39,104 nt of DNA from Synergistaceae bacterium (lineage in GTDB: Bacteria; Synergistota; Synergistia; Synergistales; Aminobacteriaceae). The notes below the pieces were generated by a model that worked only from the letters and a program-made list of their open reading frames with translations, had not been told where the DNA came from and searched no databases. The DNA lies in the NCBI GenBank assembly GCA_031276855.1, contig JAISMH010000023.1, positions 1-39,104 on the forward strand, in the 5' to 3' direction. Position 1 is the first letter of the stretch; every line of letters starts with the position of its first letter. Shown here in pieces: positions 5,310 through 27,698 of this stretch. The translations under genes and the position numbers were made by a program.

Positions 5310-6212
5310 TCACTGTTCCCGGCGATAGCGGTAGACGATCCCTTCCTGCAGCGGGTCGGGGAGGCGGCGGGTGGAGAGGATGGCCTCGCCTTCCCCGAAT
5401 TCGACTCTGTGCAGCCTGAGCGGCAGGGGGAAGCGCCCGAGGTCCAGCAGGGGCTGTATCTGAGAGACCGCCTTTCTCGTCACGTAGTCGGGAACGCCCA
5501 GGGTGTTGACGTGTACCTTGTAGTCGTCCAGCCAGAGTTCTTTGTTGTTGACGATCCGAAGGCCGCTTTCGACCTCGATCAGGATGTTGAGGGAGAAGAA
5601 CAGGAGGTCGGCGGAGTAGACCCCGCGCGCGTAGAGCCCAAGGGGAGAGATTTTCATGGAGATGTTCTTCCAGTGCCCGTCCTTGCCGAAGGTCGCCGCG
5701 CTCAGGCGGCGGTTGATGTCCTCCTCTCTGAGGCGGCAGTAAGCGTAAATCTGGAGGGCGCTCAGGCATTCGACGTTTTCCGGCCATCCGGCGGGGTCGC
5801 TGAACTGGACGTCGGCCATGCGGAAGGTCAGCCGATCCAGGCGGACTCCGTCGATAAGAACCCCTGTCAGATCCATGTAGAGGTTACGGAAACGCCCGTC
5901 GTTCGGCTGTTCGTCGATTTCCAGAAGCAGTTCCTCCGGAGAGAACTCCTTGACGTATTTCTTCAGGAGCCGCGACACGGAGTCCTGAGCATCTATCGTT
6001 CCGCGGAACTCGAAATCCGCCTTTCGGCTGAAATTCGCTTCCGCGGACGCCGGCGCCGGGGCGGGAAACGGGAACGCCAGCAAAATCCCCGCCGAAAGAA
6101 CCGAGAGTATCCGCGCGAATGAAAGCAGCGGAAAAAAAGAAGGCAACGAAAAGAAAGAAGGCAGCGGAAAACGGAAGAGCGGCATACGCGAAATGTTCAG
6201 CAGCGTTTTCAT
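5310..6212 (-). CDS. Exported LmeA/DUF2993-like protein
   Basis: About 300 residues. The start is ATG at 6212, set by a strong AGGAGG ten bases upstream. The N-terminus is basic and then strongly hydrophobic, rich in Phe, Pro and Leu, ending in PAPASAEA, a good signal peptidase I site. The mature part shows the pattern of DUF2993/LmeA proteins: VLIDGVRLDRLTFRMADVQF, the EEDINRRL segment, NKELWLDDYKVHV and a final DLGRFPLPLRLHRVEF. Known relatives bind or act at membrane phospholipids in the envelope; that role here is inference. The gene forms a tight pair with the downstream DUF4153 gene. Its signal region contains near-duplicate short blocks (FFSLPSFFPLLSF), one of many small repeats in this window. 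Confidence 0.7.
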   Translation of the reverse strand: MKTLLNISRMPLFRFPLPSFFSLPSFFPLLSFARILSVLSAGILLAFPFPAPAPASAEANFSRKADFEFRGTIDAQDSVSRLLKKYVKEFSPEELLLEIDEQPNDGRFRNLYMDLTGVLIDGVRLDRLTFRMADVQFSDPAGWPENVECLSALQIYAYCRLREEDINRRLSAATFGKDGHWKNISMKISPLGLYARGVYSADLLFFSLNILIEVESGLRIVNNKELWLDDYKVHVNTLGVPDYVTRKAVSQIQPLLDLGRFPLPLRLHRVEFGEGEAILSTRRLPDPLQEGIVYRYRREQ

Positions 6213-6322
6213 AATAAAGAGACCTCCTAAAAACGATTGACAGCGTTTGACGGCGTCCTTGCTTGCCGGCATCCTGCATGAAGCGGCGGAAGCGACGGTG
6301 AGGAAGCGATGCCCGGCAACTT

Positions 6323-6351
6323 ATTTTAGCGCATGACAGAAAAATTTTAAG
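6323..6351 (-). promoter_or_regulatory. Possible promoter for the LmeA-like/DUF4153 pair
   Basis: On the minus strand CTTAAA (6351-6346), a 17-base spacer and TAAAAT (6328-6323) lie about 110 bases ahead of the ATG at 6212. The -10 is good and the -35 weak. This is the only plausible pair I saw in the 315-base divergent gap 6213-6527. Confidence 0.35.
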
Positions 6352-6420
6352 ACGTATTGATGATGATTGAAACCTGAAGCCTGATGCTTGACGCTCAGCG
6401 CTCATGCGGAGAGAGCGATC

Positions 6421-6438
6421 GGCCCGCATCCGCGGGCC
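6421..6438. promoter_or_regulatory. GC-rich inverted repeat upstream of the DUF3084 promoter
   Basis: GGCCCGC (6421-6427) and GCGGGCC (6432-6438) form a 7-bp perfect stem with a 4-base loop. It sits 25 bases upstream of the extended -10 at 6460-6468 in the divergent gap. It could be an operator or simply a hairpin; no T-run follows, so it is not a convincing terminator. Confidence 0.35.
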
Positions 6439-6459
6439 CAATCTGCAGGTTTGAACAGT

Positions 6460-6468
6460 TGCTATAAT
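6460..6468 (+). promoter_or_regulatory. Extended -10 promoter for the DUF3084 operon
   Basis: TGCTATAAT at 6460-6468 is a consensus extended -10 element. No good -35 lies 16-18 bases upstream, which is acceptable for extended -10 promoters. Transcription would start near 6475, about 50 bases before the TTG start of the DUF3084 gene. Confidence 0.55.
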
Positions 6469-6527
6469 ATAGCCTGCGGCGGCATCATTACGGAGCGGCA
6501 TCATTCGAAGCGGAAGGAGATCGGCCT

Positions 6528-7703
6528 TTGCAGCTGCAGTTATGGACGGACACGAATTGGACGCTTATCGTTTCGATACTCGCAGGCAGCGCGGTTCTGG
6601 CCTACCTGGGGGATGTTCTCGGCCTCAAATACGGGAAGCAGAGAATATCCCTCTTCGGACTCCGCCCCAAGTACACCAGCCGGCTGATCACGGCTCTGAC
6701 CGGAATTTTCATCTCGGTCGCCGTCTTGACGGTTCTGTCGTTTTTCTCTCAGAACGTGCGCACCGCCCTTTTCACCATGAAGGCCCTTCGGACGGAGCTG
6801 AACAGCCTTTACGTTCAGCTCCAGAACAGCCGCGCCGAGTCGGAGGAGACGCAAAACAAGCTGATGCAAAGCCGCCTGGCTCTGGCGGGAAGCCGCAGGC
6901 TTCTGGAAGAACAGCAGATTTTGCTTCAGACGACGGCTCTGAGCCTCGACATGGCGCGTTTCGATCTGGAAACGCTGCGTAACGACCGAGACCTGCTGTT
7001 CAGCGAGAAAAGCGACCTCGAAGCGGCCGTGGGGGCCCTCCGTGAGGAATCCGAGGAGCTGAGAAGAGAGCTGGATATGATGCGGCTCGAAGCGATCGCG
7101 GTGCAGGCCAACGCCCTTCTGGCTCAGAGGGCCGTTCCTCCCGGCAGTTCCCGGGAGAGGGTTTCGGAGATCCTGAACGCCCTCGGCGAAGACGCCCGCG
7201 CCGCGGCCGCCGAGAGGCGCGCCGAGAAAAACGCGCCCCCGGGCGCGGGCCTGAGCGGGATAAAGCTCTCCTTCGACCCGGCGGAGGAGTCCGCGGTCGC
7301 GTCCCGCGTCACGGACGCGCCCGAACGCCGCTACATACGGGCGCTGGCGGCCGAGAACATCGCCACGGGGGAGGAGGTCCGCGTCCGCCTCGAAAGCGGC
7401 GCGAGCTACCTTCTGTACGACAAGGGGGAGACGATTCACCGCAGGCTCGCCGACCCGAGGGAGGCGGGTTTCAACGCGGAGGAGACGCTGCACGTTTTCC
7501 TGCGCGAGCTGAAGAACGTGGCGATCAAGAACGGCGTGAAACCCGACCCCGCGACGAACAGCGTCGGCTCTCTGGAGGGCGAGGACTTCTTCGAGACGGT
7601 CGAAACGCTGAAGTCCCTCGAAGAGCCCGTCATCGTCAGCGCCGTCGCTTTGGAGGATATCTATACGGAAGGCCCCGTAAGGATTAAAATCATGCTGGAG
7701 TGA
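6528..7703 (+). CDS. DUF3084 family membrane-anchored coiled-coil protein
   Basis: 391 residues. Two hydrophobic segments flank the segment YGKQRISLFGLRPKYTSR near the N-terminus (about residues 12-32 and 57-75), a layout typical of DUF3084. A long coiled coil follows (about 85-190: LRTELNSLYVQLQNSR and onward), then an Ala/Glu-rich linker and a globular C-terminal domain ending EDIYTEGPVRIKIMLE. The family is known from cyanobacteria and Synergistota among others and has no settled function; an envelope-spanning scaffold role is only inference. The start is TTG at 6528, supported by AAGGAG eight bases upstream; no ATG fits the frame there. It is the first gene of a plus-strand run with the zinc-ribbon, GNAT and RNase H genes. 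Confidence 0.85.
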   Translation: MQLQLWTDTNWTLIVSILAGSAVLAYLGDVLGLKYGKQRISLFGLRPKYTSRLITALTGIFISVAVLTVLSFFSQNVRTALFTMKALRTELNSLYVQLQNSRAESEETQNKLMQSRLALAGSRRLLEEQQILLQTTALSLDMARFDLETLRNDRDLLFSEKSDLEAAVGALREESEELRRELDMMRLEAIAVQANALLAQRAVPPGSSRERVSEILNALGEDARAAAAERRAEKNAPPGAGLSGIKLSFDPAEESAVASRVTDAPERRYIRALAAENIATGEEVRVRLESGASYLLYDKGETIHRRLADPREAGFNAEETLHVFLRELKNVAIKNGVKPDPATNSVGSLEGEDFFETVETLKSLEEPVIVSAVALEDIYTEGPVRIKIMLE

Positions 7704-7763
7704 TACCGGGCCGCGTTCGGAGCAGAGTTCGGATTCAGAATGCGAATCGGTTTGGAATCGCGG

Positions 7764-7780
7764 GCGGCGGAGCGCCGCCG
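7764..7780 (+). other. Short GC hairpin just upstream of the zinc-ribbon gene
   Basis: GGCGGCG (7764-7770), a GAG loop and CGCCGCC (7774-7780) form a 7-bp stem ending exactly where the GGAGG ribosome site begins. It may occlude that site or separate the two transcripts; no T-run follows. Confidence 0.4.
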
Positions 7781-7793
7781 GAGGTGCTGTGTG

Positions 7794-8015
7794 ATGCTGA
7801 TTGTGACGTGTCAGGTCTGCGGGGAATGCAAGGTTTTGGCCGGGGCTCCCGACGGAGACGGGCTGGCGAGGGCGTACTGGATTTGCCCCTGCTGCGGCTC
7901 GGGCCAGGTCGTTCAGCTGGAGGTTTCCGCGGACGGCCGCGGCGACCTGGAGAGTATCGTTCTGGGCATGACGATGGAGGTCCGCGCGGAGCGCGCGCTT
8001 GTCGAATGGGACTGA
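7794..8015 (+). CDS. Small zinc-ribbon-like protein
   Basis: A 73-residue protein with a four-cysteine-type arrangement: CQVCGEC near the start and CPCCGS about 25 residues later, which would form a small treble-cleft or ribbon zinc site. Beyond the cysteines no family is recognised, so the role (nucleic-acid or protein contact) is unknown. GGAGG at 7780-7784 fits either ATG 7794 or the GTG three bases before it. The gene overlaps the following acetyltransferase start by 10 bases, indicating coupled translation. The open frame extends upstream, but those residues are Arg-rich and look non-coding. Confidence 0.65.
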   Translation: MLIVTCQVCGECKVLAGAPDGDGLARAYWICPCCGSGQVVQLEVSADGRGDLESIVLGMTMEVRAERALVEWD

Positions 8016-8428
8016 GCGATTACCTTTTCTACGACAGCAAACTGGCCGTAACGGCCGTGGAGCTGCAGAACCTGTGCCGTTACACCGAATGGGGGCGCAG
8101 CCGTTCCGTCGAGGGAATCGAAGAGATGATCGAAAAGACCGGGATGTGCTTTTCGGCGCGTCACGACGCGCGGCTTGTGGGCTTCTGCCGTATCCTGACG
8201 GACTTCGTCTACCGGGCGATGCTCTGTGATGTCGTCGTCCATCCCGACCATCAGGGCAAGGGTCTGGGGAGCGCCCTGGTCGATTACGCCCTGACGCATC
8301 CCGCGACGGCGAAAATTCCGCTGGTGATGACCTACACGGAGGAGTGGGTTTCCTTCATGGCCTCCCGGGGCTTCGAGAGCCGCGGCGGGGCAATGGTCAT
8401 GCTGCGCCGCCCGATAGAGTATTCCTGA
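8006..8428 (+). CDS. GNAT family N-acetyltransferase
   Basis: 140 residues, the normal size for a single GNAT domain. The acetyl-CoA pyrophosphate-binding loop is clear (VVHPDHQGKGLGSALVDYAL, with the Q-G-K-G-L-G core), preceded by the beta strands LVGFCRILTDF and AMLCDVVV. It should transfer acetyl from acetyl-CoA to an amine; the substrate is not evident. The start ATG 8006 overlaps the zinc-ribbon gene by 10 bases. The long open frame upstream of this ATG is a shadow of the zinc-ribbon gene. Confidence 0.88.
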   Translation: MGLSDYLFYDSKLAVTAVELQNLCRYTEWGRSRSVEGIEEMIEKTGMCFSARHDARLVGFCRILTDFVYRAMLCDVVVHPDHQGKGLGSALVDYALTHPATAKIPLVMTYTEEWVSFMASRGFESRGGAMVMLRRPIEYS

Positions 8429-8441
8429 TGGGCTTATAATA

Positions 8442-8927
8442 ATGAGGAATTCAGAGCAGAAGACCGCGCCCGGCGGGCGGGATTTCGTTGTGATCTACAC
8501 GGACGGGGGGGCGACGCCCAATCCGGGGCTCGGCGGATGGGCCGCCCTTTTGATTTCCCCGGAGCACGGCGGCCGCGAAAAGGAGATTTATGGTTCCGAG
8601 GCCGGCACGACCAACAACCGCATGGAACTGACCGCGGCGATCATGGCTCTGCGGGCTCTGAAGCGCTCCTGCCGCGTCGAGATCCACACCGATTCCACGT
8701 ACCTGAAAAACGCCTTCGTCAAGGGCTGGCTGGAGAAATGGCAGAAGAACGGCTGGAAGACCTCCGCCAAAGAACCCGTGCTGAACCAGGATTTGTGGAG
8801 GGAGCTTCTGTCCCTTTCCGAAACCCACGCGATCGAGTGGGTATGGACGAAAGGGCACGCTTCGGACGCCCTGAACAACCGCTGCGACGCCCTGGTGCAG
8901 AAGGCGAAGGACGAGCACAGAAAATGA
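8442..8927 (+). CDS. rnhA: Ribonuclease HI
   Basis: Degrades the RNA strand of RNA/DNA hybrids, removing primers and R-loops. All four metal-binding residues are present: D21 in YTDGG, E62 in NNRMELTAA, D84 in HTDSTY and D149 in NNRCDAL, along with the catalytic-loop His in TKGHASD (H139). At 161 residues it is close to the E. coli enzyme. The N-terminus is about 14 residues longer than usual and ATG 8442 lacks a clear ribosome site, so the true start is somewhat uncertain; it follows the acetyltransferase by 13 bases. Confidence 0.95.
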   Translation: MRNSEQKTAPGGRDFVVIYTDGGATPNPGLGGWAALLISPEHGGREKEIYGSEAGTTNNRMELTAAIMALRALKRSCRVEIHTDSTYLKNAFVKGWLEKWQKNGWKTSAKEPVLNQDLWRELLSLSETHAIEWVWTKGHASDALNNRCDALVQKAKDEHRK

Positions 8928-23355: not shown

Positions 23356-24584
23356 ACGCTTTTCACGAACAGGCGCTCAAAATTCTGACCCCGGACTCGA
23401 ACCTGACCGAGATGCTCCGCACGATGTACCGCACGGGGGTGGATCACTGCGTCATGCTCCCGTCCTGGGATTTCAGGGACTACGTCGTCTTCACCAAAGA
23501 TCAGCTGGTGCTTTTGATCGAGCGCGACAGCCCGGATGTTCGGATCTCCGACATCCCGAGGCTGGCGGCGGAGGGGGCCTTCAAGCCTCTGCTTTTTTCG
23601 GACAGGCCTACCCTGCCGGACGACGCCGATGTGGACCCCGACGAACTGCCGGTGCTGGTCGTCGAGGACGATCAGGTCGGCCTGTCCTCGCTGAGGGAGG
23701 CGATCGCGTCCCAGGCCCCGGATCTCCCCGCCTGGTGGGAGGCGCCCGTGCCTCTCGTGATGCACAGGCGAAGGAGGATCTATCCCAACCCCACCGCGGA
23801 GCGGATGTTCGGGGAGGAACTGAGAGAACTCCCCCGCGACCTTCCCGAAAAAGACGAGTTTCTCGTGAGTCTGCGGAGCGGGGATTCGCCGCGCTCCCTG
23901 ATGTTCCGCCGTCTGGAGGACGACATTTTCACGCTGGAGGACTGCACCGGCGACGTTCTGGCGGCCGCCGACATCGCGTGGTGGGCGGCCCTCGGCAAGG
24001 CGTGGATGACCATACTCGACAAGGGGAAACGTGTGTACCGCCGCTATGAAAAGGCGGAGATCGAGGAAATGGGAGAGGAAGAGCGGGCGGCTCTGTCCGC
24101 CGAGAACACGCTGATTTCCTGCGAGTGGGAGGACGGCATTGTAGGGTACCTCTGCGTCAGAAAAAAATTGCTCAAGAAGAGCCCCGTGAAGACGAAGACG
24201 GAGAAAGCGGAGAAGACCGGGACTGCGGCGCGAAAATCCCTTCGAACCGGAAAGCAGACGAAAACGAAAGACCTTCCGGCGGAAGAGGAAGCGCGTGAAG
24301 GAGTGCCCGAAGAGGCGTCTGTGGAAGTTCCTAAGGAAGAACACGAAATATTGAAGGCCCTGGGGCCTCAGGCAATGGGGCTTTTGGCACCGGGCGCCGG
24401 TTTTTCCGCGGCCGGGGAACTGTCCTCCGCGGAGGGGCGCGCGCCTTGGGACGGCCAGGTTCAAGCCTCCCCTCCAGCCTACTCTCAAGCCTCACCTCAA
24501 GCCTCATCGCGCGGGCAGAAAGCGCGGAAAGCCCCGCGGTCCGGAGCGAGAGGGGAAAAGAATACAGGAGAAGAAAATGCCTGA
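23352..24584 (+). CDS. Unrecognised protein with PAS-like region and disordered tail
   Basis: 410 residues, start GTG 23352 overlapping the ftsY stop (GTGA). Residues 1-85 (GVDHCVMLPSWDFRDYVVF) and about 135-230 (PLVMHRRRRIYPNPTAERMF) look like alpha/beta ligand-binding folds; the second resembles a PAS core. After about residue 275 the sequence becomes Lys/Glu-rich and then Ala/Pro/Ser-rich, with small repeats (QASPP, SQASPQASS), clearly disordered. No catalytic motif is seen. Its fixed place behind ftsY and overlap with the DUF4416 gene suggest a housekeeping or signalling adaptor, but no function is assigned. Confidence 0.6.
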   Translation: MNAFHEQALKILTPDSNLTEMLRTMYRTGVDHCVMLPSWDFRDYVVFTKDQLVLLIERDSPDVRISDIPRLAAEGAFKPLLFSDRPTLPDDADVDPDELPVLVVEDDQVGLSSLREAIASQAPDLPAWWEAPVPLVMHRRRRIYPNPTAERMFGEELRELPRDLPEKDEFLVSLRSGDSPRSLMFRRLEDDIFTLEDCTGDVLAAADIAWWAALGKAWMTILDKGKRVYRRYEKAEIEEMGEEERAALSAENTLISCEWEDGIVGYLCVRKKLLKKSPVKTKTEKAEKTGTAARKSLRTGKQTKTKDLPAEEEAREGVPEEASVEVPKEEHEILKALGPQAMGLLAPGAGFSAAGELSSAEGRAPWDGQVQASPPAYSQASPQASSRGQKARKAPRSGARGEKNTGEENA

Positions 24585-25101
24585 GCCCCGTGTGAAGCTG
24601 GTCGCGGGTGTGCTGTATCCGTCCGGGGAGAGTTTCGACGGCTTCGACTGGTTCAGCTGGGCGGTCGAGGAATTGAGGGCTCTTTGGGGCGAGCCGGAGT
24701 TCAAGGGCGCGTCCGTGCCGTTCACGAGAACGGACTATTACCGCGGCATAGCCCCGAATCTTTCCCGGCGCTTCGTTTGTTTCGAGGGGCTTTTCGACGC
24801 CGGGGGCCTGCCGGACTGGAAAAAATCCGCCGTCGCCGTCGAGGCGAAAAGCCGGACGCCCCGTATCGTCAACATCGATCCGGGGTACATCGACGGGGCG
24901 CGTTTGGTTCTGGCCTCGACCAAGGATCACGCGCACCGCGTCTATCTGCGCGGCGGCATTTTTGCCGAGGTGACGATGCGCTTTCGGTTCGGGAAATGGG
25001 TGCCGTTCGACTATACCTTTCCCGACTTCGCGAGCGGTGTCTATGACGAGTTTTTGTCGGGCGCGCGAACGTCCTGGCTCAAGGCCCCCTCTCGTTTTTA
25101 A
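24577..25101 (+). CDS. DUF4416 family protein
   Basis: 174 residues, soluble. The features PRVKLVAGVLYPSGESF, PFTRTDYYRGIAPNLSRRF, RIVNIDPGYIDGARLVLAST, KDHAHRVYLRGGIFAEVTM and FDYTFPDFAS match DUF4416, widespread in Synergistota, Deltaproteobacteria and Thermotogae; the function is unknown. ATG 24577 overlaps the preceding gene by 8 bases and has AGGAG upstream. It is the last gene of the prfB-to-DUF4416 cluster and is followed by a strong hairpin. Confidence 0.85.
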   Translation: MPEPRVKLVAGVLYPSGESFDGFDWFSWAVEELRALWGEPEFKGASVPFTRTDYYRGIAPNLSRRFVCFEGLFDAGGLPDWKKSAVAVEAKSRTPRIVNIDPGYIDGARLVLASTKDHAHRVYLRGGIFAEVTMRFRFGKWVPFDYTFPDFASGVYDEFLSGARTSWLKAPSRF

Positions 25102-25105
25102 TAAT

Positions 25106-25187
25106 GGGGTCCAGGGGCCTTCGATATAAAGGGGTCCAGGGGCCTCCGGCCCCTGGCGGGTTCGGGCGGAGCCCGGGTTTTTGTTTT
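25106..25187 (+). terminator. Terminator within a duplicated REP-like hairpin element
   Basis: GGGGTCCAGGGGCCT occurs twice (25106 and 25131). The second copy forms a perfect 9-bp stem, CCAGGGGCC (25136-25144) with GGCCCCTGG (25148-25156), followed by a second stem (GGGTTC at 25158-25163 pairing with GAGCCC at 25169-25174, one G-T pair) and a run of T. This ends the long plus-strand operon. Elements of the GGGTCCAGGGG type recur in intergenic regions of many gut bacteria. The first copy is followed by TTCGATATAAAG, inverted relative to the sequence after the terminator at 294. Confidence 0.75.
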
Positions 25188-25300
25188 ATTATTACTCCAG
25201 CATGAATTTAGAGCAGTTTAACTAATGTACGCAGCATTGATTGTGCTTGAACTGTTCAATTTATACTTAATTGTTACACACTGCTTATGTTAAATGAAAC

Positions 25301-25309
25301 TGCTATAAT
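25301..25309 (+). promoter_or_regulatory. Extended -10 promoter facing the helicase gene
   Basis: TGCTATAAT at 25301-25309 is an extended -10 made by the right end of the nested inverted repeat. Transcription would begin near 25316 and run into the helicase gene, leaving a leader of about 100 bases. No -35 of quality is seen. Confidence 0.45.
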
Positions 25310-25325
25310 TCAAACACTTTACGTA

Positions 25326-25385
25326 TGAACTTAGTGGTTAGTGCAAAGATAGAGACGCATTTTGATATTTCTATGCCGGAGTAAT
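25326..25385 (+). CDS. Possible 19-residue leader peptide inside the left repeat
   Basis: ATG 25326 to TAA 25385 encodes MNLVVSAKIETHFDISMPE. The right element, read on the minus strand, keeps the same reading frame over the first 15 codons (MNLVIDAKIETHFDI), with silent third-base changes among the differences, then diverges. No ribosome site precedes it. It could be a leader peptide, a remnant of a duplicated gene start, or chance. Confidence 0.25.
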
Positions 25386-25418
25386 TAACTTAATTATTTG
25401 TCCTGGGAGGATGATGTT

Positions 25419-27374
25419 TTGCATAGAGCTTTCTACTCAGAGAGTGTAGAATCGTTTTTACGTCATCATAGAGACACAATTCTTGGAGAATTGACGCGAA
25501 ATAATCCATTTTCTCTCGAGGATTTACAGCGTAACGCATGGATTGATGAAATTGATATACTCAAAGGAGCCTTATCCAAAATAGGGAAAGGGCATATTAT
25601 ATTCGAATATACAATTCCACGTATCGGGAAGCGTATTGATGCTGTTTACATAGCTGACGGTTTGATTTTCTTGTTTGAGTTTAAGACTGGAGCCGATCAA
25701 TATGCAAGACATGCTATTGAGCAAGTGATTGATTATGCGCTTGACTTACAAAACTTCCACAAGGCAAGCCATGATCGTTTGTTAGTTCCAGTCCTCATTG
25801 CTACAAGAGCTCCAGATAACGATATTAATTGTTATGAAATGAAACCCGGTATACTTGAAGTCATCAAGTGTAACCCAAATAATCTCATAAATGCAATTAA
25901 CCTTGTGTTATCAAAGTACAAAGCAGCATCGTTTGATGCCGTATGCTGGATAAACTCGCAATATGCTCCCACCCCAACGATCATTGAAGCAGCACAGGCA
26001 CTTTATCGTGGACATAGTGTTGCTGATATTTCCAAAAATGATGCGCATGCTATTAACTTAAAACAAACCACGGAAGCTATTAACACGATCATTGAAAAAA
26101 GCAAATGCGAGAAAAGAAAGTCTATTTGCTTTATCACTGGAGTACCTGGCGCAGGCAAAACATTAGCTGGCCTAAACATAGCGAACGAACGTCATAAGTT
26201 TAACGAAAGCGAACATGCCGTATTTTTGTCTGGCAATCAGCCTTTAGTTAATGTTTTGCAGGAAGCCCTTGCACGTGACGAACACAAACGCCTTGGTACA
26301 AAAAAGTCGGAGGCAATAACCAAGGCAAAGGCTTTTATTCAGATAATCCACCATTTCCGTGATGATGCCATATCTACAAGTAAGCCCCCAAATGAGAGAG
26401 TTGCTATTTTTGATGAAGCACAACGAGCATGGACTAAGAAAATGCTCTGTGATTTTATGGCGCGTAAAAAAGGTAAGCCAAACTTTAATATGTCTGAACC
26501 AGAGTTTTTGATCAGCATAATGGATCGACATACAGATTGGGCTGTTATTATTTGCTTAATTGGTGGTGGGCAAGAAATAAATACAGGTGAAGCCGGCCTC
26601 TTGGAGTGGTTTAATTCTTTAAAAAAAGATTTTTCTATCTGGGACATATATATATCAGAAAAAATAACGGATAGTGAATATACACGCGGATCATCTATGA
26701 AACAGTTTTTCGGCGGATTAAGATATACTGCTGTTGAATCTCTGCATCTAGCAGTGTCCCTACGTTCTTTTAGAAGCGAAAATGTAGCTGGCTTTGTAAA
26801 ATCATTGCTTGATGTTGATAAAGAGAGCGCTACTTTTCTATATACTAATTTATACAAAGACTACTCAATCTTGTTAACAAGGGACATTGACAAAGCTAAA
26901 GCATGGATTAAATCTCAAGCAAAGGGTACAGAACGTTACGGTCTCATTGCCAGTTCTGGAGCAAGGCGCTTACGCCCTTTTGGTATATGGGTGCAAAGCA
27001 AAGTGGACGCAAAAATCTGGTTTTTGGATAATGCTGAAGATGTTCGGTCATCTTACTTTCTGGAGGATACGGCGACAGAGTTTGACGTCCAAGGATTAGA
27101 GCTCGATTGGACAATAGTTTGTTGGGATGCTAATTTACGTTTTGTCAAAGACCACTTTGAGCATTACAGCTTTAAGGGTTCAACATGGAAGAACATAAAT
27201 AAGCAAGAAGATGTTCTATATCTTAAAAACGCTTATCGTGTATTGCTTACACGTGCGAGGCAAGGAATGATCATCTTTATTCCTAGAGGAAGCGACACAG
27301 ACGCAACGAGGCCTCATTCATATTACGATGAGACATATCACTACCTAAAGGAGATTGGCATCATGGAAATATAG
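25419..27374 (+). CDS. PD-(D/E)xK-like nuclease fused to DUF2075 (Schlafen-type) helicase, putative defence gene
   Basis: About 651 residues. The N-terminal part has a nuclease-like core: GKRIDAV (D74) then LFEFKTG (E87-x-K89), the D...ExK pattern. The DUF2075 ATPase/helicase follows: Walker A GVPGAGKT (about 241-248), Walker B FDEAQ (D332-E333), GGGQEINTGEAG as a further helicase motif, and a late LTRARQGMIIFIPRG with the arginines of motif VI. Stand-alone genes of this kind occur sporadically in bacteria, often in variable loci, and are suspected of antiphage function; this is inference. I chose TTG 25419 because GGGAGG lies 8 bases upstream; an earlier TTG (25398) has none. Codons are AT-rich (ATA, TTA, AGA), unlike all neighbours, indicating transfer. 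Confidence 0.85.
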   Translation: MHRAFYSESVESFLRHHRDTILGELTRNNPFSLEDLQRNAWIDEIDILKGALSKIGKGHIIFEYTIPRIGKRIDAVYIADGLIFLFEFKTGADQYARHAIEQVIDYALDLQNFHKASHDRLLVPVLIATRAPDNDINCYEMKPGILEVIKCNPNNLINAINLVLSKYKAASFDAVCWINSQYAPTPTIIEAAQALYRGHSVADISKNDAHAINLKQTTEAINTIIEKSKCEKRKSICFITGVPGAGKTLAGLNIANERHKFNESEHAVFLSGNQPLVNVLQEALARDEHKRLGTKKSEAITKAKAFIQIIHHFRDDAISTSKPPNERVAIFDEAQRAWTKKMLCDFMARKKGKPNFNMSEPEFLISIMDRHTDWAVIICLIGGGQEINTGEAGLLEWFNSLKKDFSIWDIYISEKITDSEYTRGSSMKQFFGGLRYTAVESLHLAVSLRSFRSENVAGFVKSLLDVDKESATFLYTNLYKDYSILLTRDIDKAKAWIKSQAKGTERYGLIASSGARRLRPFGIWVQSKVDAKIWFLDNAEDVRSSYFLEDTATEFDVQGLELDWTIVCWDANLRFVKDHFEHYSFKGSTWKNINKQEDVLYLKNAYRVLLTRARQGMIIFIPRGSDTDATRPHSYYDETYHYLKEIGIMEI

Positions 27375-27475
27375 ATATTGATCCGGCATGGAAATATATC
27401 AAAATGTGTCTCTATCTTTGCGTCAATTACTAAGTTCATACGTAAATTGTTTGCGTTGAATCCATGCCGGAGTAA
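27374..27475 (-). repeat. Right MITE-like element, inverted relative to the left
   Basis: About 100 bp. Its outer end CCATGCCGGAGTAATATT (27461-27478) and, inverted, its inner end GATATTGATCCGGCATGG (27374-27391) form imperfect terminal repeats. The segment 27382-27453 pairs with 25311-25380 as a 70-bp inverted repeat. It lacks the nested unit present in the left copy. Its inner end touches the helicase stop codon, and CATGGAAATATA occurs both at the gene end (27362-27373) and in the element (27387-27398). Confidence 0.7.
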
Positions 27476-27534
27476 TATTAGAATCCATTTACTTTAACTA
27501 CGGTATCAATAAAGTCTCGCAAAATATTGCATGA

Positions 27535-27666
27535 CTATGCGCTTTACCCACTAAAGAGACGAAGACGAGCGTCTTTCTGAGAGAAGTTATAGCTTCTTTT
27601 CAGCGACGATCGGATTTAGGCTGCAGTGAAGAGAAGTTTATGTCTATGCTTGCTGAGATAATCTAA
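27535..27666 (+). pseudogene. Possible 3' remnant of a truncated gene
   Basis: An open frame without a start begins after a stop near 27532 and ends at TAA 27664-27666. Its product, including TSVFLREVIASFQRRSDLG and SEEKFMSMLAEII, has the amino-acid balance of a real helical protein end and a base composition between that of the island and the host. No family is recognised. It lies in the 324-base gap before purB and could be the tail of a gene cut off by the island or by an older insertion. Confidence 0.3.
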
Positions 27667-27698
27667 CAATCATTTTTGTTTTGCAAGGAGGAATCTCT

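What the first reader, a model, noticed from the sequence alone, without database searches (positions are those of the whole stretch)
25191..27475. Helicase-nuclease cargo gene enclosed by two inverted MITE-like elements
An AT-rich gene for a D...ExK nuclease plus DUF2075 helicase sits between two related short elements in opposite orientation. Each ends in ATGCCGGAGTAAT-type terminal repeats, and the outermost ends match as ATTACTCC(A/G)GCATG. No transposase is inside. This suggests a minimal cargo unit moved by a helper enzyme acting on MITE ends, carrying a suspected defence gene, a composite arrangement I do not recognise.
Basis: partly seen in the sequence, partly recalled or inferred. 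Interest (0 to 1): 0.82.

Follow-up and report, generated by a model that had tools for sequence, protein, structure and literature searches.

The report
Defence gene between two IS630-type MITEs
A probable antiviral gene has been inserted between two housekeeping genes, bracketed by two short transposon remnants (MITEs) that an IS630-type transposase could move; this resembles known MITE-bounded mobile units, but movement of this unit is not shown.

Summary
At 25192-25384 (E1) and 27378-27475 (E2, inverted) lie two copies of one short element; between them is a single AT-rich gene (25419-27374). Homologous ~99-bp elements occur in five related genomes, ending TTACTCCGGCAT...ATGCCGGAGTAA and almost always flanked by TA. 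One interrupts a group II intron reverse transcriptase; removing 99 bp plus one TA restores its frame. The same ends bound a decayed IS630 transposase (DDE_3) in one relative, and near-identical ends an IS630 transposase in another. So these are IS630-type MITEs. The cargo is PADLOC's defence candidate PDC-S41 (PD-(D/E)xK nuclease plus Schlafen-group-3/DUF2075 helicase). In ten relatives DUF4416 and purB are adjacent, so the insert is derived. Not shown: that the bracketed unit moved as one. Every MITE insertion leaves TA, so the outer TAs do not separate composite transposition from two independent insertions. AT-rich DNA continues 200 bp past E2; four PDC-S41 homologues elsewhere lack the MITE; the host assembly has no DDE_3 transposase. 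MITE-bounded composites are already known (TIME-COMPs, MITE-flanked integrons). This is a new member of a known kind with an unusual cargo.

The parts
25192..25384 (+). E1: IS630-type MITE copy, enlarged to 193 bp by a nested element; TA on its left (25190-25191), TT on its right (25385-25386)
   Evidence: ends TTACTCCAGCATG / rc TTACTCCGGCATA; right half 86% identical to E2; junctions read directly
25208..25308 (.). Nested second inverted-repeat element inside E1 (arms 25208-25219 and 25297-25308, TTAGAGCAGTTT...AAACTGCTATAA), itself MITE-like
   Evidence: inverted repeat, 12 nt at 92%; absent from the homologous E2 and E3
25419..27374 (+). Cargo gene, PDC-S41 family: N-terminal PD-(D/E)xK nuclease plus SF1 helicase (SLFN-g3 / DUF2075); alternative start at 25398
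   Evidence: PADLOC PDC-S41 1.8e-286; Pfam PF09848 4.6e-82; invariant motifs; N-terminal fold matches PD-(D/E)xK nucleases
27378..27475 (-). E2: 98-bp IS630-type MITE, inverted relative to E1, TA on both sides (27376-27377, 27476-27477); outer end TTACTCCGGCATGG intact, inner end TTGATCCGGCATGG degenerate
   Evidence: model R1 match 27376-27477, E 4e-21; 82% identical to E3 on another contig
25190..27477 (.). Putative MITE-bounded unit with TA at both outer borders
   Evidence: sequence read directly
25188..27682 (.). Whole AT-rich insert between the DUF4416 gene and purB; a 10-bp direct repeat TTTTTGTTTT lies at 25178-25187 and at 27673-27682
   Evidence: repeat found exactly twice in the window, 0.04 expected; composition; DUF4416-purB adjacent in relatives
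27478..27672 (.). AT-rich (37% GC) non-coding stretch to the right of E2, outside the MITE-bounded unit, origin unknown
   Evidence: GC 0.373 for 27477-27680, no open frame of note; no match in plasmids or elsewhere in the genome beyond 18 nt

Best explanation
A horizontally acquired single-gene antiviral candidate (PDC-S41: nuclease plus helicase) sits between two inverted copies of an IS630/Tc1-mariner-type MITE. The outermost ends of the two MITEs form an intact inverted pair with TA at both borders, so an IS630 transposase supplied in trans could excise and reinsert the 2.28-kb segment at a TA, as with MITE-bounded composite structures elsewhere. Shown: that the elements are TA-duplicating MITEs sharing ends with IS630 elements of the same bacterial family, that the cargo is PDC-S41 with intact motifs, and that the insertion between DUF4416 and purB is derived. 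Inferred: that the pair moved, or can move, the gene as a unit.
For: Paired-end pattern found in 3 of 188 genomes of the phylum with zero hits of the reversed control. Elements of 98-101 bp flanked by TA on both sides in G009, G022 (three copies), G001, E2 and E3. Frame of a group II intron RT restored on removal of one G022 copy plus one TA. The same left end leads into a DDE_3 transposase in G003:C6; IS630 transposase (HTH_33 + DDE_3) starting at TA|TTACTTCGGCAT in G009:C47. In G022, contigs break about 125 bp inside longer copies with the same ends; their outer parts encode MKINEINFTEIAASDSRALTPEAL... and ...RRFMQTQQRAPDRVKKLFEHKRVYYAA*. Cargo PDC-S41. Gene absent from 100 relatives, while DUF4416-purB are adjacent in ten relatives. 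Two of the three full copies in this 2.35-Mb assembly lie within 2.3 kb of each other and face opposite ways.
Against: The TA duplications are what any independent MITE insertion would leave, so they do not prove composite transposition. E1's inner border is TT. Foreign-looking DNA extends 200 bp beyond E2, and a 10-bp direct repeat brackets the larger insert rather than the MITE unit. PDC-S41 homologues in a gammaproteobacterial MAG, Prevotella, a Persicobacter plasmid and a phage-like contig have no such MITE at the gene. No second bracketed gene was found. No DDE_3 transposase in the host assembly. Copies differ by 12-19%, so any movement is old.
Confidence: 0.5

Rival explanations
1. Two independent insertions: the PDC-S41 gene arrived by another route (for instance recombination at terminator T-tracts), and IS630-type MITEs later landed on either side because acquired AT-rich DNA is rich in TA targets. 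The bracket is accidental.
For: E2 has its own TA on both sides; E3 sits alone beside a restriction-modification-like gene; AT-rich DNA continues 200 bp past E2 and a 10-bp direct repeat brackets the larger insert; homologues lack the MITE.
Against: Two of three full copies within 2.3 kb in a 2.35-Mb genome is unlikely under uniform insertion (about 0.006 by a simple estimate: three pairs times 2 x 2.3 kb / 2.35 Mb), though not if targets are confined to a few percent of the genome (about 0.1). Orientation is inverted and both elements lie within about 35 bp of the gene.
Confidence: 0.4
2. One element with long ends: a derivative of an IS630 element in which PDC-S41 replaced the transposase (a mobile-insertion-cassette-like unit), rather than two separate MITEs.
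For: The outer ends are an intact inverted pair flanked by TA; 58 nt of inner sequence is also inverted-repeated.
Against: Each side carries both of its own ends, and full ~99-bp copies of the same element stand alone elsewhere.
Confidence: 0.05
3. The repeats are regulatory or RNA structures (terminators, processing sites) and not transposable elements.
For: They fold as hairpins (z about -2.4 to -6.6 as single-stranded DNA) and flank the gene tightly.
Against: TA duplications, insertion into a group II intron RT ORF with clean frame restoration, sharing of ends with IS630 transposase elements, no Rfam match near a family's gathering score.
Confidence: 0.03

Closest known systems
TIME-COMP (composite structures bounded by two Tn3-derived miniature elements; PMC13367494)
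   Same: A gene between two direct or inverted MITE copies, no internal transposase, mobilisation in trans, inference from duplications at the outermost ends.
   Different: Ends and duplication are IS630-type (TA, 2 bp) instead of Tn3-type (5 bp); cargo is an antiviral candidate instead of a resistance gene; chromosomal; movement in trans shown for TIME-COMPs, not here.
MITE-flanked class 1 integrons of Acinetobacter (439-bp MITE; PMC3934969)
   Same: Two copies of one MITE at both ends of acquired DNA, with target duplication at the outer ends.
   Different: Different MITE family (5-bp duplication), longer MITE, large integron cargo, recurrent at several sites; the present case is a single occurrence.
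Mobile insertion cassettes (e.g. the qnrS2 cassette on Aeromonas plasmid pAC3, PMC5444012, abstract only)
   Same: IS/MITE-type ends around a passenger gene without a transposase.
   Different: In the classical form (own knowledge) the cassette is one element with one pair of IS ends; here each side is a complete MITE.
IS630 / Tc1-mariner group insertion sequences
   Same: TA target and TA duplication; HTH_33 + DDE_3 transposase in elements with the same or one-mismatch ends in relatives.
   Different: The window elements carry no transposase.
PDC-S41 (PADLOC phage-defence candidate, single gene)
   Same: Full-length match, 9-657 of 658 residues to 2-652 of 657.
   Different: Nothing notable in the protein; only its MITE-bracketed setting differs from the homologues inspected.

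Membership tests
MITE (IS630/Tc1-mariner type) | Short (50-500 bp) with terminal inverted repeats and no transposase | tested here: met
   98-101 bp, 193 bp for E1 with its nested insert; ends TTACTCCGGCAT
MITE (IS630/Tc1-mariner type) | TA target-site duplication | tested here: met
   TA at both sides in E2, E3, G009, G001 and three G022 copies; E1 right side is TT; two further copies (G003:C4, G028) have TA at one side only
MITE (IS630/Tc1-mariner type) | Evidence of insertion: interrupted gene restored by removal | tested here: met
   G022:C138 copy in a group II intron RT; joined flanks read KTRILPFGRFKG
MITE (IS630/Tc1-mariner type) | Autonomous element with the same ends and a DDE transposase | tested here: met
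   G003:C6 decayed copy with identical left end and DDE_3; G009:C47 transposase with a one-mismatch left end, right end cut off by another IS. No intact two-ended copy was seen, and none in the host itself
MITE-bounded composite (TIME-COMP-like) | Two copies of one MITE bounding a passenger gene, outermost ends intact | tested here: met
MITE-bounded composite (TIME-COMP-like) | Duplication at the outermost ends that is informative of composite movement | tested here: inconclusive
   TA at both outer borders, but a 2-bp TA is also left by single insertions
MITE-bounded composite (TIME-COMP-like) | Same unit at another site, or empty site at base resolution | tested here: inconclusive
   Gene-order empty site in ten relatives; no genome of the same genus was in the set searched, so no base-level empty site; unit not found elsewhere
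MITE-bounded composite (TIME-COMP-like) | Mobilisation by a transposase in trans | not testable with these tools
   needs a bench transposition assay
PDC-S41 defence candidate | Full-length match to the PADLOC model | tested here: met
   E 1.8e-286; homologues match too
PDC-S41 defence candidate | Protects against phage | not testable with these tools
   no paper in the searched library names PDC-S41
PD-(D/E)xK nuclease plus SF1 helicase | D...ExK...Q motif and Walker A/B invariant in homologues; nuclease fold | tested here: met
   D74, E87-F-K89, Q102, Y106; GVPGAGKT 241-248; IFDEAQR 330-336; N-terminal model (pLDDT about 60-91) matches McrC and Can2/Card1 nucleases

The most novel reading that the evidence does not exclude
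IS630-type MITE pairs act as a transposase-free shuttle for single-gene antiviral systems: E1-PDC-S41-E2 is a minimal mobile defence cassette that jumps into TA sites between housekeeping genes whenever an IS630 transposase enters the cell.
Probability: 0.15. Interest if true: 0.6.

Novelty: new member of a known kind. Interest (0 to 1): 0.36.

Why it matters
MITE-bounded composites are documented mainly for antibiotic-resistance genes, and annotation pipelines overlook MITEs because they carry no gene (PMC13367494). If single-gene defence systems travel the same way, part of the unexplained scatter of such genes outside recognised islands would have a simple cause. The case also describes a previously unlisted (as far as searched) TA-duplicating MITE family and links it to its IS630 parents, giving a specific end sequence, TTACTYCGGCAT, to search with.

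Tried and rejected
Rfam search of the region: only two sub-threshold chance matches. MITE pattern in viral contigs: none, in two scans. PDC-S41 in viral contigs: none. A transposase in the host assembly: no DDE_3 match in G000. Motif next to PDC-S41 homologues: the best downstream match in the Persicobacter plasmid turned out to be next to what reads as an IS21-like element, not this MITE. Other copies in G000: loose matches at C71 and at 7691 in the window are not elements; one solo end remnant at C176. Literature for DUF2075 with defence and phage: no paper held; for PDC-S41: none. Solved structures by sequence: no meaningful hit; Schlafen 11 at E 0.17. Reading the two sides as one long-ended element was rejected because full ~99-bp copies stand alone elsewhere.

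Full report
What is there. The window is contig C116 of a 2.35-Mb assembly. Between the DUF4416 gene (24577-25101) and purB (start about 27700) lies an AT-rich stretch (37-39% GC against 62-63% in the two neighbouring genes). It holds, from left to right, element E1 (25192-25384), one gene (25419-27374), element E2 in the opposite orientation (27378-27475) and about 200 bp of non-coding AT-rich DNA. The outer ends are TTACTCCAGCATG and its near-exact inverse; four of the five motif matches in the window are the four ends of the two elements.

What the elements are. A third copy (E3) lies on another contig of the same assembly, 82% identical to E2. A pattern requiring both ends 60-90 bases apart found elements in three genomes out of 188 of the phylum, with no hit of the reversed control; single-end searches added G003 and G028. 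Reading the junctions gives a constant rule: the element runs from TTACTCC to GGAGTAA, 98-101 bp, with TA on either side in E2, E3, G009, G001 and three copies in G022. Exceptions are E1's inner side (TT) and two copies in G003 and G028 with TA on one side only. In G022:C138 the element interrupts a group II intron reverse transcriptase; removing 99 bp and one TA restores KTRILPFGRFKG in frame. That is an empty site reconstructed from the flanks of one insertion.

The helper. TA duplication is the signature of the IS630/Tc1-mariner group (established knowledge). The same left end, TA|TTACTCCGGCATTCAAAATAATCAAAATTATG, leads into a decayed DDE_3 transposase in G003:C6. In G009:C47 an HTH_33 + DDE_3 transposase begins just inside TA|TTACTTCGGCAT, one mismatch from the MITE end; its right end is cut off by another IS. 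In G022 several contigs break about 125 bp inside copies with these ends; the outer parts encode a likely transposase N-terminus and C-terminus, as expected if the body of a multi-copy IS was not assembled. No DDE_3 match exists in the host assembly, so the helper is at present absent there, or is missing from a 98%-complete draft.

E1 in detail. E1 is longer because a second inverted-repeat element (arms TTAGAGCAGTTT / AAACTGCTATAA, 25208-25308) is nested in its left part; E2 and E3 lack it. E2's inner end and E3's right end are degenerate. The copies differ from each other by 12-19%, so they are old.

The cargo. The gene matches PADLOC PDC-S41 over its full length (1.8e-286) and Pfam SLFN-g3_helicase, formerly DUF2075. 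Three homologues checked also match PDC-S41. Invariant residues between the window protein and two homologues include D74, E87, K89, Q102, Y106 and the helicase motifs GVPGAGKT and IFDEAQR. The AlphaFold2 model from a shallow alignment is poor overall (pLDDT 47.5) but fair to good for residues 1-180; its best solved matches are PD-(D/E)xK nucleases such as McrC and Can2/Card1. The helicase part of the model must not be interpreted. A working mechanism, inferred from these families only, is a nuclease coupled to a translocating helicase acting on foreign nucleic acid; no published test of PDC-S41 was found.

The insertion is derived. In ten relatives the DUF4416 gene is followed within about 0-190 bp by purB, in several of them then by the tyrosine recombinase gene, and the PDC-S41 gene is absent from all 100 relatives searched. 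The GC-rich terminator-like sequence left of E1 has counterparts in this intergenic space in relatives (L088, L091), so it belongs to the host.

Did the unit move as one? For: the outermost ends are intact and form an inverted pair with TA outside; two of the three full copies in the genome are within 2.3 kb of each other and face opposite ways; the elements touch the gene closely (E2's TA starts 2 bases after the stop codon). Against: single insertions leave the same TA, so the hallmark is not informative; 200 bp of AT-rich DNA lies beyond E2; the 10-bp repeat TTTTTGTTTT occurs only twice in the window, exactly at the borders of the larger insert (25178-25187, 27673-27682), although it also occurs elsewhere in the genome; homologues in other hosts lack the MITE; and the model search found no second bracketed gene. 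A simple uniform model gives about 0.006 for the proximity of two of three copies, but about 0.1 if insertion is confined to 5% of the genome; this is my estimate. I therefore hold the composite reading at about one half and two separate insertions at 0.4.

Comparison. MITE-bounded composites are a known kind: TIME-COMPs have been shown to move with a transposase in trans (PMC13367494), and 439-bp MITEs flank class 1 integrons in Acinetobacter (PMC3934969). The present case differs in the MITE family (IS630, TA) and in the cargo (an antiviral candidate). I found no report of a defence gene in such a setting, in an open-access library searched with a few terms only.

Verdict. Observation confirmed; interpretation partly supported; new member of a known kind.

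Noticed in passing
L015 (G000:C105) 949-2391: E3, the third MITE copy, sits beside an N6-methylase gene (type I MTase-like, frame broken after 365 aa) and a short excisionase-like stretch, next to a peptidase gene: a second MITE near a defence-type locus, but alone.
   Followed up: partly
window 25208-25308: A second, different MITE-like inverted repeat (TTAGAGCAGTTT...AAACTGCTATAA) nested inside E1; possibly also TA-flanked. No other copy was noticed in the genome.
   Followed up: partly
window 25178-25187 and 27673-27682: A 10-bp direct repeat TTTTTGTTTT brackets the entire AT-rich insert; on the left it is the T-tract of the terminator. Target duplication, microhomology or chance was not resolved.
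   Followed up: partly
L110 (Persicobacter plasmid CP012865) downstream of the PDC-S41 homologue: The PDC-S41 homologue is followed by what reads as an IS21-like end and an istA-like frame; the gene keeps company with different mobile elements in different hosts.
   Followed up: no
L079 (Prevotella RUG126) 6088-8892: A UvrD-like helicase gene of 934 aa directly follows the PDC-S41 homologue; a possible two-gene arrangement.
   Followed up: no
L067 (G009:C47) 753-1697: IS630 transposase truncated at its 3' end by another IS whose product resembles IS21 IstA.
   Followed up: no
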